Assembly (NCBI GenBank): GCA_014728215.1
Contig: WJLZ01000044.1
Location: 1-64,000, forward strand
Length of the DNA stretch: 64,000 nucleotides
Direction: 5' to 3'
Source of the DNA: Chitinivibrionales bacterium
GTDB taxonomy: Bacteria > Fibrobacterota > Chitinivibrionia > Chitinivibrionales > WJKA01
In this document: positions 26,020 through 31,463 of the stretch, piece by piece
How positions within the stretch are numbered: the stretch's first letter is position 1
Layout of the letters: each line of letters opens with the position of its first letter
Made by a program: the position numbers and the translations under genes
Notes under the pieces: generated by a model
Seen by the model: only the letters and a program-made list of their open reading frames with translations
Database searches by the model: none
Told to the model about the DNA's origin: nothing

Positions 26020-28131
26020 TCACTCTTCACCCCCGATCAACGCATCGATATTCTCTTTGATATCACGCTTTGTTAAGCTCGGTTTGAGCGCCACGCGGGC
26101 GGAATCGGGGACTCTGAGCGCATCCTGGTATGCACGCACTGCTTTGTTTATCTTTTTGTTTCCGGCATAGGCTTGAGCGAGGCTGATAAGCAGTGCCGGT
26201 TCCTTTTGCGTGGCCGAATGGTTTTCAAGGAGCTTGATACATGATTTGTGCTCATCGCTTTCCAGGAGCACCGTTGCGTAGGTGTCGAGGATATGGAGGT
26301 TATCCGGCGCAAGATTCCGGGCCTGTTCAGCTGCCGAAATAGCGGTTTTTTTATCGAAATCGGGTGAGTGGGCCAGGGACCAGGCAAAATTGTTGAGAAG
26401 CGCTGCGTTGGCCGCACTGTCCTTTGCCAGATCCTCCTTATGTGAATCGAGCACAGTGCGGAACATCCGGGCAGCTTTTTCAGTCTTTTGGGCGGTCAGA
26501 AGAAAATTGGCATAATTGATTACCAGTCCCGGATTTTTATCTTTGCCCAGGGCTCTTTCGTAGGTTTGCTCCGCTTTGTCGATTTCACCGAGTTTGAGAT
26601 AGGCCTGGGCCTGGATCGGTGCAACGACTTCCGGGGGAGCTGAACTTTTTTCACACTCCCGCGCGGCTTTTTCGTATTCTTCTTTGATAACCCAGGTCGA
26701 CAACCGGGCGGCTTCAAACCGGGGTTCGTCGGGATGGTCCGCTGCGAGCTGTGTGAACAGTGCCCGGGCGCTGTCGACCTTACCCGATTTAAGGGCCATC
26801 AGGGCCCCGCTGTATATAACCTTGACATCATCACCGTACTTTGACTCCAGAATCCGCTGAGCAGCCCGGCTCTTGTCGAGCAGTTTCTTACGAAATGCAA
26901 GATCGCGAAACAGTGTCAGTGAATACTTTGTCATCACATTCTTACGGTGCATGGTGCTGACCACCGCAAGAGCTTCATCGGATTTACCCGCCAGCGACAG
27001 GGCTGTGGCATATTCAACCAGGACCCGGGGAGATCGGAGAAAAACCTGGGGGAGTTTCCGGTAGGCATCGAGGGCTACTTCATACTGTTGGGCAACAACA
27101 TTTTCCCGCGCATATACAAGTTCGACCGCAGGATCCCGGGGCAGTTTTTCCCGCGCCGAGGTAATCAGCGCCAACCGGCCGCTGTTTTCCGCTGCGATCG
27201 ACAACAAAGCCTGATAGAATAATTTTTCGCCTTCATGATAGGGCGATTTCCCGGGAATATTGGCCGCAAGGTCCTTTATCGCACCGATATTTTCATCGGC
27301 CAGGTACAGCAGACCGAGGCTGGTACGTGCCCGGAGATTGATAATGTGGTCGTGTTTATGCGCAGCAGCTTTGCTGATCCCCTTCAGAAGTTCCTCGGCT
27401 TCCTTTCTCCGCTCCTGCGCGATAAGAAAACCGGCATGCTCCAGTTGAAGCGGATCGGTGTAGTTGCCCAGGTTTTGGGCTTCCTGAAAGAGGTCTTCAA
27501 TGGAATCGTACTTATAATCGAATGCATAGAACGAAGCCAGCATAACCGCAGTTGCCGGGTTGAGAAGCTTTTTCTTTCTGCATGAAGCAAGAAAGGCCAT
27601 CGCACTGTCGGCATTACCCGATTTGTTAAGGACAACAGCGATCCGGTTGCAGAGCGACGAAGTCGGTTTCTTTTGAAATGCCCTGGTCCAGAGGGTCAGC
27701 GCAGAATCGTAGGCCTCAAATTGATAATACAATGATGCCTTGAATGCATCACTTTTACTGGTATCATCGAGTTCCTGATAGAGCGACAGAACATAGTCGA
27801 GCTTCTGCGATTTCTGCGTGTGAAAGGAGAGACGGGCCAGTGCATGGAGTATCGCCCGGTGTTTGAGTCCCTTCTCCCATGCCGCTTTTGTATGAAGGAA
27901 TGCTGCATTCTGATTGGAAGTTACCTGCGCGGCAGCCCATTCGTATTCGGGCTTGCGGGGCTCCTTTTTGGTCGCCGCAAGAAAATATTTATATGCCTTC
28001 TCCTGATTCCCTTGCGACAGCTCCTCTTTGCCCTGCTCAAAACACTCCTTTGCAGTCATTCCCTGACCCACACCACAGGAGACCGTTAGAAGAAGTATAC
28101 ACCCGACAAGACTTACAGCCATGCGTTTCAT
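26020..28131 (-). CDS. TPR-repeat lipoprotein
   Basis: A 703-residue protein with a lipoprotein signal (LLLTVSC, lipidated Cys 19) and tetratricopeptide repeats along the whole length, clearest at ~30-60 (GNQEKAYKYFLAATKKEPRKP), ~510-560 (GEIDKAEQTYERALGKDKNPG) and the C-terminus (NKKINKAVRAYQDALRVP). It is probably a periplasmic or outer-membrane-tethered scaffold for an envelope complex. AAAGG stands 8 nt before the ATG. It is monocistronic and convergent with the exported deacetylase gene. No enzymatic domain is seen; the partner is unknown. Confidence 0.88.
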   Translation of the reverse strand: MKRMAVSLVGCILLLTVSCGVGQGMTAKECFEQGKEELSQGNQEKAYKYFLAATKKEPRKPEYEWAAAQVTSNQNAAFLHTKAAWEKGLKHRAILHALARLSFHTQKSQKLDYVLSLYQELDDTSKSDAFKASLYYQFEAYDSALTLWTRAFQKKPTSSLCNRIAVVLNKSGNADSAMAFLASCRKKKLLNPATAVMLASFYAFDYKYDSIEDLFQEAQNLGNYTDPLQLEHAGFLIAQERRKEAEELLKGISKAAAHKHDHIINLRARTSLGLLYLADENIGAIKDLAANIPGKSPYHEGEKLFYQALLSIAAENSGRLALITSAREKLPRDPAVELVYARENVVAQQYEVALDAYRKLPQVFLRSPRVLVEYATALSLAGKSDEALAVVSTMHRKNVMTKYSLTLFRDLAFRKKLLDKSRAAQRILESKYGDDVKVIYSGALMALKSGKVDSARALFTQLAADHPDEPRFEAARLSTWVIKEEYEKAARECEKSSAPPEVVAPIQAQAYLKLGEIDKAEQTYERALGKDKNPGLVINYANFLLTAQKTEKAARMFRTVLDSHKEDLAKDSAANAALLNNFAWSLAHSPDFDKKTAISAAEQARNLAPDNLHILDTYATVLLESDEHKSCIKLLENHSATQKEPALLISLAQAYAGNKKINKAVRAYQDALRVPDSARVALKPSLTKRDIKENIDALIGGEE

Positions 28132-28341
28132 ACTATCACCTTTCTTTTAAGGAATTAACAGCTCGATTGGTCAAACAAAATAAGGTGCAGCATCAAGGAT
28201 AGTTGGTTCCCTGATGCACGCCAAAATATCACTTGTCGAAAATACATCGGTACATGAGGTAAATCCATTTTTTCAGGAAGGAGAAAAGTGTTTTTTTGCG
28301 CAGCCAATGGATGCTTCAGGCTTTGCGATTAATTCTGAGGA

Positions 28342-28965
28342 TCAGTGGGTAAGAATGAACAGCAATACGACCGAGTTCGCACCGGTGTACTGATACCACA
28401 CGCATAGAGCGATGGTTGGGAATGCGATAACGCTCTCGAATTTGTGCGCCAAATCCATAAGCCCTTTGTGAAAAACAACTCTGAACGGGAAGGGATAATC
28501 GAGCTACGTAAGCTGGCTAAGCAAGGCAAATTCGATAAAATCCTCGTTACGGAGCTATCACGGCTGGGGCGAAACGCCTATCAGGTTGCCACCTTGATTC
28601 ATGAATTCACAGAGCTGGGGATTTCTATTGTAGTTCAATCTTTGGGCGTAGATACGCTTTCGGATGAAGGCAAGGCAAACCCATTAGTTGACCTACTTAT
28701 TGCCGTCATAAACCAATTCTCTCAGATGGAACGAGCATTTCTTGTTGATCGCATAAATTCGGGGCTTGAACGAGCACGCAGAAACGGTAAACAGCTCGGG
28801 CGACCACAGGGCACTACTCTTGAACAGGGGGATTTGCTGAAAAAATACGGGGGGCTGGTTCGGGATCTGAAAGTGAAAATTTTGGTTCGGAAGGCTGCCC
28901 GTATTCACGGGGTTTCTACGGTAACCGTGTAAAAAGTGAAAAAAGCAATGCTCGCTCTGGCTTGA
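28342..28965 (+). pseudogene. Decayed serine recombinase (resolvase/invertase family)
   Basis: The largest intact ORF (28444-28932) covers the central and C-terminal parts: KILVTELSRLGRNAYQV, ERAFLVDRINSGLERARRNGK, LGRPQG and a helix-turn-helix ending RKAARIHGVSTVTV. In the same frame, upstream of a TAG at 28405-28407, GKNEQQYDR is readable, matching the usual RVSxNEQQYDR start of this family. Downstream of the TAA at 28930-28932 the frame continues KVKKAMLALA to a TGA at 28963, which fits the family's normal tail. The catalytic-serine N-terminus is missing, with stops at 28330 and 28336. This is a dead mobile-element recombinase carrying at least two nonsense changes. Confidence 0.82.
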
Positions 28966-28968
28966 TTA

Positions 28969-29493
28969 TTATACCAATGGCTCGATTTCCACGGTCAGTT
29001 GCCTTGAGATATACTCACGGTAGGCGAGACGGTAGCTTTTCGACCATTCATCCGCCGCTTTTTCAAGCCGCTTGCAGTCTTTTGGTGGTTCATGGAATGG
29101 ATCGTCATTTGGGCGCAATTGCCTGATTTCCATGTGAGCATAATTTTGGGGGTTTTGTTCGGGACAAGGATCATGGCAGGTTGAAGTTTTGCCATTGTAT
29201 CGAGCATGCTCTACCGTGAATGAATAGCATCCGTCCTGCTTCGAATCTTCGCGCCTTTTGCGAACGTCTTCGGGTTTCGCAAATCGACCCCAATCGCAGG
29301 AAATACCACCTTTTTTCGGGAAAGTGAAGTGGTTCCCCTCAAGAATGCCCGTGTCCCCGGGCAAATCAGCTTTCTTGAATCCCCGATAAAGTTTTTCGTG
29401 TGGCAGGAAATCGCTGGGCTTAAACTGGTAGCGTAAAAGACGGGCGAAGAATGGTTTTTCAGCGAGTTTTCGTTTTATAGATTCTGACAGCAT
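28969..29493 (-). CDS. Unrecognised protein C of the ssrA-linked three-gene cassette
   Basis: About 174 residues from the ATG at 29493 (a TTG two codons earlier is also possible). No signal peptide or membrane span. A basic N-terminal helix (ESIKRKLAEKPFFARLLRY) is followed by a compact, aromatic- and charge-rich domain with several conserved-looking short blocks: LYRGFKK, ISCDWGRFAKPEDVR, CYSFTVEHARY, TCHDPCPEQ and YAHMEIRQL. The CHDPC and His/Glu residues could bind a metal; I assign no function. The start overlaps the previous gene by 35 bp, so the proteins are probably made together. It is cytoplasmic and the last gene of the cassette, running into the recombinase remnant. Confidence 0.7.
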   Translation of the reverse strand: MLSESIKRKLAEKPFFARLLRYQFKPSDFLPHEKLYRGFKKADLPGDTGILEGNHFTFPKKGGISCDWGRFAKPEDVRKRREDSKQDGCYSFTVEHARYNGKTSTCHDPCPEQNPQNYAHMEIRQLRPNDDPFHEPPKDCKRLEKAADEWSKSYRLAYREYISRQLTVEIEPLV

Positions 29494-30079
29494 TTTCAAA
29501 ATTCATGTCGAGAATATCTTCGTTATGGATGATTTCCTTTTTATCGTTATCACATACAACGACACCGATTTCAGCGTCATTATAAGCTTCAATCACAAGC
29601 GAACGACTTCCACGGGAATCAATGCATTCATAAACGATGTAGACCCCTTCTTCTTTCGTAGAAAGAATTCTGTCGGGCTGCAGGTCATATTTCTTGTAGA
29701 TTTCCCAACAAAGGTTGAAGGCGTTTTTCTTTGCCGTTATGTTCGGCCTGCTCACCCCTTCGGCAGCCCAATGTGAAGGAAAAAACAACTTATAGAAAAC
29801 TTTTTGCTGGAGAGAATCGTAGAACGACAATTCCTTTGTCGAAGAAGGCATTTCGTAATAGGTAATTGCGTTATCACCGTTGGTTTTGGCCTGGCTACCA
29901 CCAATTGCCGCAGATGGGGATTCGATTACCTGCACATTGTTCGTTTCTTTCAAGGATGGATCAGTACTCCACTGTTGAGTGAAACCTTTGTCAGCCAAAC
30001 CTTCAAAGAAATTGAATGCCGCTTCCCCAAAAGAGGATTTGGTTCCCATGAACTCTTCTACGGTAATTGTTGATGCCAT
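29459..30079 (-). CDS. Unrecognised protein B of the ssrA-linked three-gene cassette
   Basis: A 206-residue soluble protein with no signal peptide. The first ~75 residues are Ser/Thr/Asn-rich and probably flexible. The second half has a fold-like core: ITAKKNAFNLCWEIYKKYDLQPDRIL, then strands EEGVYIVYECID and RSLVIEAYNDAEIGVVVCDN. That pattern, a helix followed by a beta sheet with an IEAYNDAEIG turn, is seen in uncharacterised proteins I cannot name. GGGGAG lies 8 nt before the ATG, inside the end of the preceding gene (1-bp gap), so it is co-expressed with A and C. Confidence 0.72.
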   Translation of the reverse strand: MASTITVEEFMGTKSSFGEAAFNFFEGLADKGFTQQWSTDPSLKETNNVQVIESPSAAIGGSQAKTNGDNAITYYEMPSSTKELSFYDSLQQKVFYKLFFPSHWAAEGVSRPNITAKKNAFNLCWEIYKKYDLQPDRILSTKEEGVYIVYECIDSRGSRSLVIEAYNDAEIGVVVCDNDKKEIIHNEDILDMNFENAVRIYKTKTR

Positions 30080-30080
30080 A

Positions 30081-30701
30081 CTATTTGCTCCCCACTAAAT
30101 CCTTGCACATATTGCAAGCTCGGTGGAAATTTTCTACCAATGCATCTGATGCTATCTGCATTGCTCTCTCAGGCTGCTGGTAATCGAAATTAATCCGCAA
30201 AAGTTTTGCCTGTCCCTTGAACTCATAAGCCACATTCACTGTGTGATCTTCCTGTGAAATGACGTGGCTGATCGAACGGGAAATGAGATTGCCGCCTTCG
30301 ATATTCTCGTATAACCCTTTGATATCCTCGTCTGTTTCGATCTTCTCAAGCTTGAAAAATTCATCGGCTTCAAGCCTGAATACGAAGTTACAGCCTGCTG
30401 CTGCAATCGGGGTGTGGTTCAACAAATCTTGAATTCCTCGGCCCAACTCAGCGATTTTCTTCAAGGTTTCGTCGTCGAGCCTTTTGGGGATAAAAACCAA
30501 GCGACCACCATTGGGGTCGAGAATGAACTCATCAGGAAACTCAATTTTGAAGGCAGATACAACCCCTGCAACAACTTGAACGTTGAACTTTTCAGGTATA
30601 AGGGTAGGGAATTCCTTTTTCAGCCATTGGGGTTGTATTATTGCAGGATTCCATGCCCCTATAGCTATGAAATTTGACTGTTCTGGTATTGGCTTGCTCA
30701 T
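30081..30701 (-). CDS. Unrecognised protein A of the ssrA-linked three-gene cassette
   Basis: A 206-residue soluble protein and the first gene of the minus-strand trio. N-terminal block FIAIGAWNPAIIQPQWLKKEFP, a central beta region (RLVFIPKRLDD), LLNHTPIAAAGCNFVFRL, and a final helix with two Cys (HRACNMCKDLV). I do not recognise the family; the alternating strand pattern suggests one alpha/beta domain repeated or folded back. There is no good ribosome-binding site: the region before the ATG is A-rich, suggesting weak or unusual initiation. Stop and next start are 1 bp apart. Upstream lies a broken coiled-coil ORF, then ssrA. Confidence 0.72.
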   Translation of the reverse strand: MSKPIPEQSNFIAIGAWNPAIIQPQWLKKEFPTLIPEKFNVQVVAGVVSAFKIEFPDEFILDPNGGRLVFIPKRLDDETLKKIAELGRGIQDLLNHTPIAAAGCNFVFRLEADEFFKLEKIETDEDIKGLYENIEGGNLISRSISHVISQEDHTVNVAYEFKGQAKLLRINFDYQQPERAMQIASDALVENFHRACNMCKDLVGSK

Positions 30702-30874
30702 TTTTTAATATTACAATTCTTTCATTTAAAGATTAAGTAGAAAATAAGTCCTGCTCTTCTTGGCTCGAAAGAAATAGCTGGAATTTTAATCACCGGCAGG
30801 TCTACCCCAGTTCGGACAACTGGCTCAGTGGATATTTTGAATCCCTGAGGATTTCAGATAATTGGAACACTCCG

Positions 30875-31035
30875 TTATTCCGATAAACTCTGCGCCCATT
30901 TATTCTTTAGAAGATCAGTCAGACTTTCGACCTGTTTCTTTAAAAATGCATTTTCGTTTTTGAGCAGCTCATTCTCTTTTGGGTTACTTCATAATCCGAC
31001 TGGCTTAAAGTAGACTCTGAAAATCTCGCAATTCG
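30875..31035 (-). pseudogene. Frameshifted remnant of a coiled-coil (regulator-like) protein
   Basis: On the minus strand one frame reads RFSESTLSQSDYEVTQK, then a second frame continues ENELLKNENAFLKKQVESL and ends QSLSE followed by a stop at 30877-30875. Joined across a single-base shift near 30980 they make one leucine-zipper-like helix, as found at the C-terminus of phage-repressor-type regulators. The N-terminal part is not found. A fossil of the mobile element is the simplest reading. Confidence 0.45.
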
Positions 31036-31059
31036 CTGATTGTGTTGAAGATAGCAACA

Positions 31060-31094
31060 AAAAAGCCCGTTTGCCTTGGGTTAGGAAAACGGGC
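31060..31094 (-). terminator. Rho-independent terminator of ssrA
   Basis: On the minus strand GCCCGTTT pairs with AAACGGGC around a 13-nt loop, followed by six T, starting 10 bp past the tmRNA 3' end. Confidence 0.9.
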
Positions 31095-31103
31095 GAAAAT
31101 TAA

Positions 31104-31463
31104 TGGTGGAGGTGAGGGGAGTCGAACCCCTGTCCGATGAGCGATCTGCGGAAGCCGCTACATGTTTAGTCTGTCTTTTGATCTCGTTATCTCCTGCGCC
31201 GGCAGACAAGCTCAGGAAATAACCAGCACCAATTGATCTCGCCGACACGGTCGGTGCGACCCCATGTCGACCAGCACCCTAAATTGGGCCCGATACACTA
31301 CGGGTGCGCTCATGTATCAGACCGGCTGCGCTATTTAGGCAGCCATTGCAAAAGAGTAATCTTCGGCAATTATTAGTTTTATCGGATGATTAACGAGGCC
31401 AACCGATTATCCTCGACATGCTGCTTACGTTTCACTCTCACCGTCGAAAACCAGTACACCCCC
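31104..31463 (-). ncRNA. ssrA: Transfer-messenger RNA (tmRNA)
   Basis: 360 nt. The 5' end GGGGGTG pairs with CACCTCC before the encoded ACCA end, making the 7-bp acceptor stem. The 3' T-arm GGGGTTCGACTCCCC is intact, and the 5' side carries the usual TTTTCGACGG. The tag frame lies at 31367-31335: a GCC resume codon, then AEDYSFAMAA and TAA, ending in the hydrophobic tail that targets stalled products to ClpXP-type proteases. It rescues ribosomes on broken mRNAs. Its 3' end is a common integration site for mobile elements, and accessory DNA does lie just downstream here. Confidence 0.96.

What the first reader, a model, noticed from the sequence alone, without database searches (positions are those of the whole stretch)
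28969..30701. Three intact unknown genes between a dead recombinase and ssrA: candidate new accessory (defence-like) system
A compact operon (1-bp gap, then 35-bp overlap) of three soluble proteins with no family I recognise sits at the 3' side of ssrA, a classic integration site. It is flanked by a dead recombinase and a broken regulator-like ORF. Intact genes inside decayed mobile DNA often confer defence or competition. Protein C has a possible metal-binding CHDPC motif; protein B has a nucleic-acid-enzyme-sized alpha/beta core.
Basis: partly seen in the sequence, partly recalled or inferred. Interest (0 to 1): 0.75.

Follow-up and report, generated by a model that had tools for sequence, protein, structure and literature searches.

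The report
Modular three-gene toxin-like accessory cassette
The three unknown genes are real and form a rare, mobile three-gene cassette also found in distant bacteria and in phage contigs; it is built like a much larger, unstudied set of swap-in cassettes whose last gene is sometimes a known bacterial toxin, so it is probably a growth-arrest or anti-phage module, but no function has been tested.

Summary
The operon is real: A (30701-30081), B (30079-29459) and C (29493-28969), minus strand, intact, beside ssrA, with a truncated serine recombinase. The same A-B-C order recurs in at least six other loci (three more genomes of the window's phylum, Methylobacter, a Planctomycetota genome, a phage contig). 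It is sporadic (C in 4 of 168 genomes of the phylum), often in mobile or restriction-modification surroundings, and matches no curated family I could search.

The key result is modularity. B-C also occurs behind a different first gene: a 77-aa protein in two phage contigs, or a TIGR04255-family protein. A also occurs with other partners. A and TIGR04255 share three partner classes: B/C-type, 'TQSCDLVR'-type and 'SRAYYA'-type. Profile comparisons beat almost all column-shuffled controls. In TIGR04255 cassettes the last gene can be a PemK/MazF toxin. A folds confidently (pLDDT 90) as an alpha/beta protein with no close PDB match.

Best reading: a modular toxin-antitoxin or abortive-infection cassette, with C as effector, B as its coupled antitoxin or regulator, and A as sensor or adaptor. 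Cassette and modularity are shown; toxicity and defence are inferred. The CHDPC 'metal motif' is not conserved, and integration at ssrA could not be shown.

The parts
30081..30701 (-). Gene A, 206 aa, first gene; 'GAWNPAIxxPxW ... HTPIxAxGxNFxF' family; predicted alpha/beta fold; proposed sensor/adaptor
   Evidence: ORF; conserved in order with B and C; AlphaFold2 pLDDT 89.7, pTM 0.85; profile relation to TIGR04255, 0/295 shuffles
29459..30079 (-). Gene B, 206 aa, middle gene; conserved C-terminal domain 'LPxxWxxEGxxxPN...P.RIA.T.E.GV...L.IEVYN'; proposed antitoxin/regulator
   Evidence: ORF; alignment; relation to WDG-type middle ORFs of TIGR04255 cassettes, P 0.0032, 0/250 shuffles
28969..29493 (-). 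Gene C, 174 aa (ATG 29493; TTG 29499 alternative), last gene, overlaps B by 35 bp; 'SxNWxRFS ... DG ... HDP ... NYxHxExR'; proposed effector
   Evidence: ORF and start codons; alignments; weak relation to the last genes of TIGR04255 cassettes, 1/248 to 3/250 shuffles
28444..28932 (+). Truncated serine recombinase (Resolvase domain without its N-terminal part), convergent with C
   Evidence: Pfam PF00239 6.3e-19 from profile position 47; stops upstream
30875..30988 (-). Possible remnant of a regulator C-terminus (coiled-coil stretch KENELLKNENAFLKKQVESLTDLL), out of frame with what precedes it
   Evidence: three-frame translation; no database support
31104..31463 (-). ssrA (tmRNA), tag AEDYSFAMAA
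   Evidence: ARAGORN

Best explanation
A-B-C is a horizontally spread, modular conflict cassette of toxin-antitoxin or abortive-infection type. C, the last gene, is the effector that harms or arrests the cell. B, whose gene overlaps or nearly abuts C, is the cognate antitoxin or regulator that is made with it. A, a compact alpha/beta protein, is an exchangeable sensor/adaptor that holds the pair off and releases it on an unknown trigger such as phage infection. A can be replaced by a TIGR04255-family protein or a 77-aa protein, and A itself is used with other effector pairs. Shown: cassette, gene order, exchange of parts, mobile surroundings, counterpart relation to TIGR04255 cassettes. Inferred: who is toxin, who is antitoxin, the trigger and any defence effect.
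For: Trio in the same order in 7 loci. B-C behind a 77-aa gene in two phage contigs, one with a Mu-type transposase, and behind a TIGR04255 gene (65 bits, cut-off 30; B 7.6e-27, C 1.1e-49). A with 'TQSCDLVR' proteins, with 'SRAYYA' proteins and, in one locus, near a PIN-like ORF. The same two partner classes sit behind TIGR04255 (P 4.2e-5 and 4.6e-6). Shuffle tests: B 0/250, Y 0/250, A 0/295, C 1/248; controls 114/247 and 161/248. One TIGR04255 cassette ends in PemK (1.1e-18). Another TIGR04255 gene on a Vibrio plasmid is followed by a hypothetical plus an annotated zeta toxin. Some TIGR04255 middle genes are HTH proteins. Type I RM genes sit beside two trio loci.
Against: No toxicity, neutralisation or phage data exist. 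C has no recognised enzyme family and its structure model failed (pLDDT 45). PADLOC has no match for trio proteins or for the TIGR04255-cassette proteins scanned. Homology of C to TIGR04255-cassette last genes is statistically modest. Absent from the annotated phage and plasmid collections searched.
Confidence: 0.55

Rival explanations
1. The cassette is a real mobile accessory module but not a toxin system: for example a regulatory or lysogeny/plasmid-maintenance module, or a phage-encoded anti-defence set, in which A, B and C form a structural or signalling complex.
For: Present in temperate and Mu-type phage contigs next to repressor and structural genes; none of the three is a known toxin; PADLOC is silent.
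Against: Equivalent positions in related cassettes hold a PemK toxin and HEPN-like or PIN-like ORFs; restriction-modification surroundings in two trio loci.
Confidence: 0.25
2. Same cassette with reversed roles: B (or A) is the toxic protein and C the neutraliser.
For: Nothing here tests which protein is toxic; B-C order alone does not fix roles.
Against: In related cassettes the known or suspected toxin domains (PemK, SRAYYA/HEPN-like) are in the last gene and the middle gene may be an HTH protein.
Confidence: 0.12
3. The trio is decaying or chance ORFs in a graveyard of mobile DNA.
For: Flanked by a truncated recombinase and a possible regulator remnant.
Against: All three reading frames intact and conserved in order across phyla, with invariant residues.
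Confidence: 0.03

Closest known systems
TIGR04255 family (NCBIfam 'sporadTIGR04255', function unknown) and its gene cassettes
   Same: First gene of a three-gene cassette; shares partner classes B/C, 'CD'-motif Y and SRAYYA with A; B-C found directly behind one TIGR04255 gene; profile relation to A above all shuffles (0/295).
   Different: No A-family member scores against the TIGR04255 model; A is shorter (about 206 vs 250 aa); single-pair P only 0.1.
Panacea (PanA, DUF4065) hyperpromiscuous antitoxin network (PMC8832971; PMC10440598)
   Same: Works-like comparison: one exchangeable protein paired with many unrelated effectors, in phages and bacteria; proposed there as a sensor.
   Different: No sequence relation claimed or found; three genes rather than two; no toxicity shown here.
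Type II toxin-antitoxin systems (PemK/MazF, HEPN, VapC/PIN)
   Same: Compact operon, overlapping last two genes, sporadic mobile distribution; such toxin domains appear in the last position of related cassettes (PemK by Pfam; HEPN-like and PIN-like by motif only).
   Different: C itself belongs to none of these families; neutralisation untested.

Membership tests
TIGR04255 family (protein A) | Score above the curated NCBIfam cut-off (30 bits) | tested here: not met
   None of 9 A proteins matches TIGR04255 even at E 10
TIGR04255 family (protein A) | Distant profile relationship | tested here: inconclusive
   hhalign P 0.1, but 0/295 column shuffles reach it and it is A's best match of 15 profiles; same partner classes
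TIGR04255-type three-gene cassette | First gene followed by middle gene and last gene of the B and C kinds | tested here: met
   L097: TIGR04255 + B + C; B-Bwall 0/250, C-Cwall 1/248 shuffles
Type II toxin-antitoxin system | Small compact operon with coupled or overlapping genes, mobile and sporadic | tested here: met
Type II toxin-antitoxin system | Toxic protein neutralised by its partner | not testable with these tools
   needs expression experiments
Known anti-phage defence systems (PADLOC-DB 2.0) | Match to a defence protein model | tested here: not met
   no match for A, B, C or for the TIGR04255-cassette proteins scanned
Genomic island integrated at ssrA | Direct repeat of the ssrA 3' end bounding the island | tested here: not met
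   only one copy in the 64-kb window with up to 3 mismatches
Genomic island integrated at ssrA | Empty site in a close relative | tested here: inconclusive
   the same-genus contig ends just beyond the left flanking gene
Cys-His metal site (CHDPC) | Conservation of the two cysteines | tested here: not met
   positions read C/V/Y and C/L/M/I in homologues; only HDP is invariant

The most novel reading that the evidence does not exclude
A, TIGR04255 and the 77-aa protein are interchangeable sensor/adaptors of one large, undescribed class of three-gene immune cassettes with plug-in effectors, present in several phyla and in phages. C is a new effector family in it, with a conserved SxNW...DG...HDP...NYxHxExR signature.
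Probability: 0.5. Interest if true: 0.78.

Novelty: new variant of a known kind. Interest (0 to 1): 0.6.

Why it matters
TIGR04255 proteins are fairly common (23 of 299 sampled Pseudomonadota genomes) yet no paper in the held library mentions the family. Linking them, the A family and the 77-aa protein through shared partners turns several groups of 'hypothetical' genes into one testable modular system, with a PemK-bearing variant that makes the toxin hypothesis easy to check.

Tried and rejected
Pfam, NCBIfam, PHROGs, PADLOC and PDB sequence searches of A, B and C: nothing significant. Plasmid and phage collections with C, A and the 77-aa protein: no match. Structure of C from 8 sequences: pLDDT 45, not used. 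Loose profile scans of the phylum (E up to 5): only the known loci plus short chance matches. Fold search of A: PDB matches all E > 0.001 with TM 0.37 or less, not used; one viral model (A0A515MGR4, unnamed) E 1.5e-7, TM 0.64. PDB hits of the SRAYYA protein to tryptophan synthase judged spurious. Decayed ORFs rejected because of conservation. Adding the last gene of L113 to the C counterparts lowered the C score (6/200 shuffles reach it). Empty-site test failed because the relative's contig ends.

Full report
OBSERVATION. C can start at TTG 29499 or ATG 29493; the ATG gives the reported 35-bp overlap with B. The tmRNA gene is at 31104-31463. The recombinase ORF 28444-28932 (+) matches the Resolvase domain only from profile position 47 on, and the frames upstream are full of stops, so it is a truncated copy. 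The left neighbour is a TPR gene (26020-28131). It and the gene before it keep their order in the same-genus genome G001, so the left flank is host backbone. That contig ends shortly beyond the TPR gene, so the empty site cannot be read. No second copy of the ssrA 3' end occurs in the window, and no intact integrase was found beside the trio, so integration at ssrA is not shown.

CONSERVATION. A protein search with B in 61 genomes found three other genomes with an intact, convincing relative; each holds A-B-C in the same order. The wider set adds Methylobacter tundripaludum SV96 (L007), an IMG/VR contig with a phage terminase and ParA (L015) and a Planctomycetota genome (L129: A 1.2e-46, B 4e-35, C 1.5e-38). 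The cassette is rare: C in 4 of 168 genomes of the phylum and, in the class of Methylobacter, only in Methylobacter itself among 369 genomes. None of A, B or C has a significant match in Pfam, NCBIfam, PHROGs, PADLOC or PDB sequences.

SURROUNDINGS. Two trio loci sit beside complete type I restriction-modification genes; one also has a Fic gene matching the PADLOC model SoFic (L008, L009) and DUF3800 genes. L007 lies near integrase-like and transposase-like ORFs, and a serine recombinase is convergent with C, as in the window; the two recombinases are only distantly alike (22% identity). The Fibrobacter locus lies beside two tRNA genes. Two IMG/VR contigs carry B-C without A, behind a 77-aa gene (D). 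L013 has a Mu-type transposase and an S24 repressor. In L014 the D-B-C set runs against the surrounding strand, as an added cassette would.

EXCHANGE OF PARTS. Three observations show modularity. First, B-C occurs behind a TIGR04255-family protein in G607 (L097: TIGR04255 65 bits against a cut-off of 30; B 7.6e-27; C 1.1e-49). Second, A occurs without B-C: with a 290-300-aa 'TQSCDLVR' protein Y (L010, L011, L012, L130), and in L132 with a middle gene plus an 'SRAYYA' protein. Third, a survey of TIGR04255 in 299 Pseudomonadota genomes (23 positive) shows the same architecture: TIGR04255, a middle gene, a last gene. Last genes there include C-like '...NPxHAxI' proteins with 'WDG' middle genes, Y-like 'SNTCDMS' proteins, SRAYYA proteins and a PemK toxin (L102, 1.1e-18). 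On a Vibrio plasmid a TIGR04255 gene is followed by a hypothetical and an annotated zeta toxin, though with a gap of about 107 bp, so that pair may be independent. D has a relative next to a DUF7689 gene in another mobile-looking locus (L087).

TESTS OF COUNTERPARTS. In a matrix of profile comparisons B, Y, A and C each scored best against their positional counterpart in TIGR04255 cassettes: B P 0.0032 over 107 columns; C P 0.028-0.04, aligning SCNW with SVSW and HDP..NYSH with P..NPAHS; A with TIGR04255 P 0.1; Y P 4.2e-5. Column-shuffled controls reached the observed score in 0/250 (B), 0/250 (Y), 1/248 and 3/250 (C against two counterpart sets) and 1/247 (A), against 114/247 and 161/248 for two mismatched pairs. 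With 18 A sequences the A-TIGR04255 test gave 0/295. The SRAYYA proteins behind A and behind TIGR04255 are related (P 4.6e-6, 0/300). These tests are modest one by one, above all for C and A. No A protein scores against the TIGR04255 model itself. So A works in the position of TIGR04255 and is probably a remote relative, but is not filed as a member.

STRUCTURE. A is predicted with high confidence (pLDDT 89.7, pTM 0.85): a mixed alpha/beta fold that reads like two repeats of strands closed by a helix (my reading of the secondary structure), with the conserved HTPIxAxGxN stretch at the start of a long strand. PDB matches are weak (best E 0.0011, TM 0.37). One unnamed viral protein model matches over its whole length (A0A515MGR4, E 1.5e-7, TM 0.64). 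C could not be modelled. In ten C proteins the invariant residues are L37, S67, W70, R82, D89, G90, H109, D110, P111, N119, H122, E124 and R126 (TTG numbering). Neither cysteine of CHDPC is conserved, and Cys68 is Tyr in L129. Hence the metal-binding idea is not supported, while an H/D/E-containing active or binding site remains possible.

INTERPRETATION. The anatomy (compact operon, overlapping or near-abutting B-C, exchangeable first gene, last position shared with PemK, sporadic mobile distribution, RM and phage surroundings) fits a toxin-antitoxin or abortive-infection cassette best. By analogy with the Panacea antitoxin network (PMC8832971, PMC10440598), the exchangeable protein may be the sensor or neutraliser. 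Which protein is toxic, how C acts and what triggers it are inferences. I put 0.55 on this reading, 0.25 on a non-toxin accessory module and 0.12 on reversed roles.

NOVELTY. Modular conflict cassettes are a known kind; this set is not in the curated libraries searched, and TIGR04255 is named in no paper of the held library (subscription papers are mostly not covered). I therefore rate it a new variant of a known kind.

Noticed in passing
L008:9959-12466: Candidatus Raymondbacteria carries A-B-C followed at once by a second pair (127 aa + 134 aa, '...PRHANIVNWP') of the WDG/NPHA kind: two effector-like pairs behind one A.
   Followed up: partly
L087:11753-13029: A relative of the 77-aa protein D stands before a 211-aa protein and a DUF7689 protein in a locus with an integrase-like and a Rep gene, suggesting D is another exchangeable first gene.
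   Followed up: partly
L102:483-3720: A TIGR04255 + 95-aa + PemK cassette is embedded between a possible PglZ-like ORF and a DNA methyltransferase-like gene (both by eye); looks like a defence island.
   Followed up: no
L099:243-944 and L100:2756-3400: Partner genes of TIGR04255 with a 'GLTCATF' motif that looks like a papain/NlpC-type cysteine peptidase; no Pfam match.
   Followed up: no
L123:2767-4408: A lone C-like gene (SSTWCEYF ... NEAHA) beside a VapC toxin gene and a DUF433 gene on a Rhizobium gallicum plasmid, near nif genes.
   Followed up: no
L129 and L137: One Planctomycetota genome (G832) holds two A cassettes with different partners: B-C in one, an unrelated 242-aa + 175-aa pair in the other.
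   Followed up: partly
window 28252-31103: The TPR promoter region shares a short stretch (TCGAAAATACATCG) with the same-genus genome up to about 28252, so foreign DNA may begin just after it; GC is lower (about 0.39-0.48) than in the TPR gene.
   Followed up: partly
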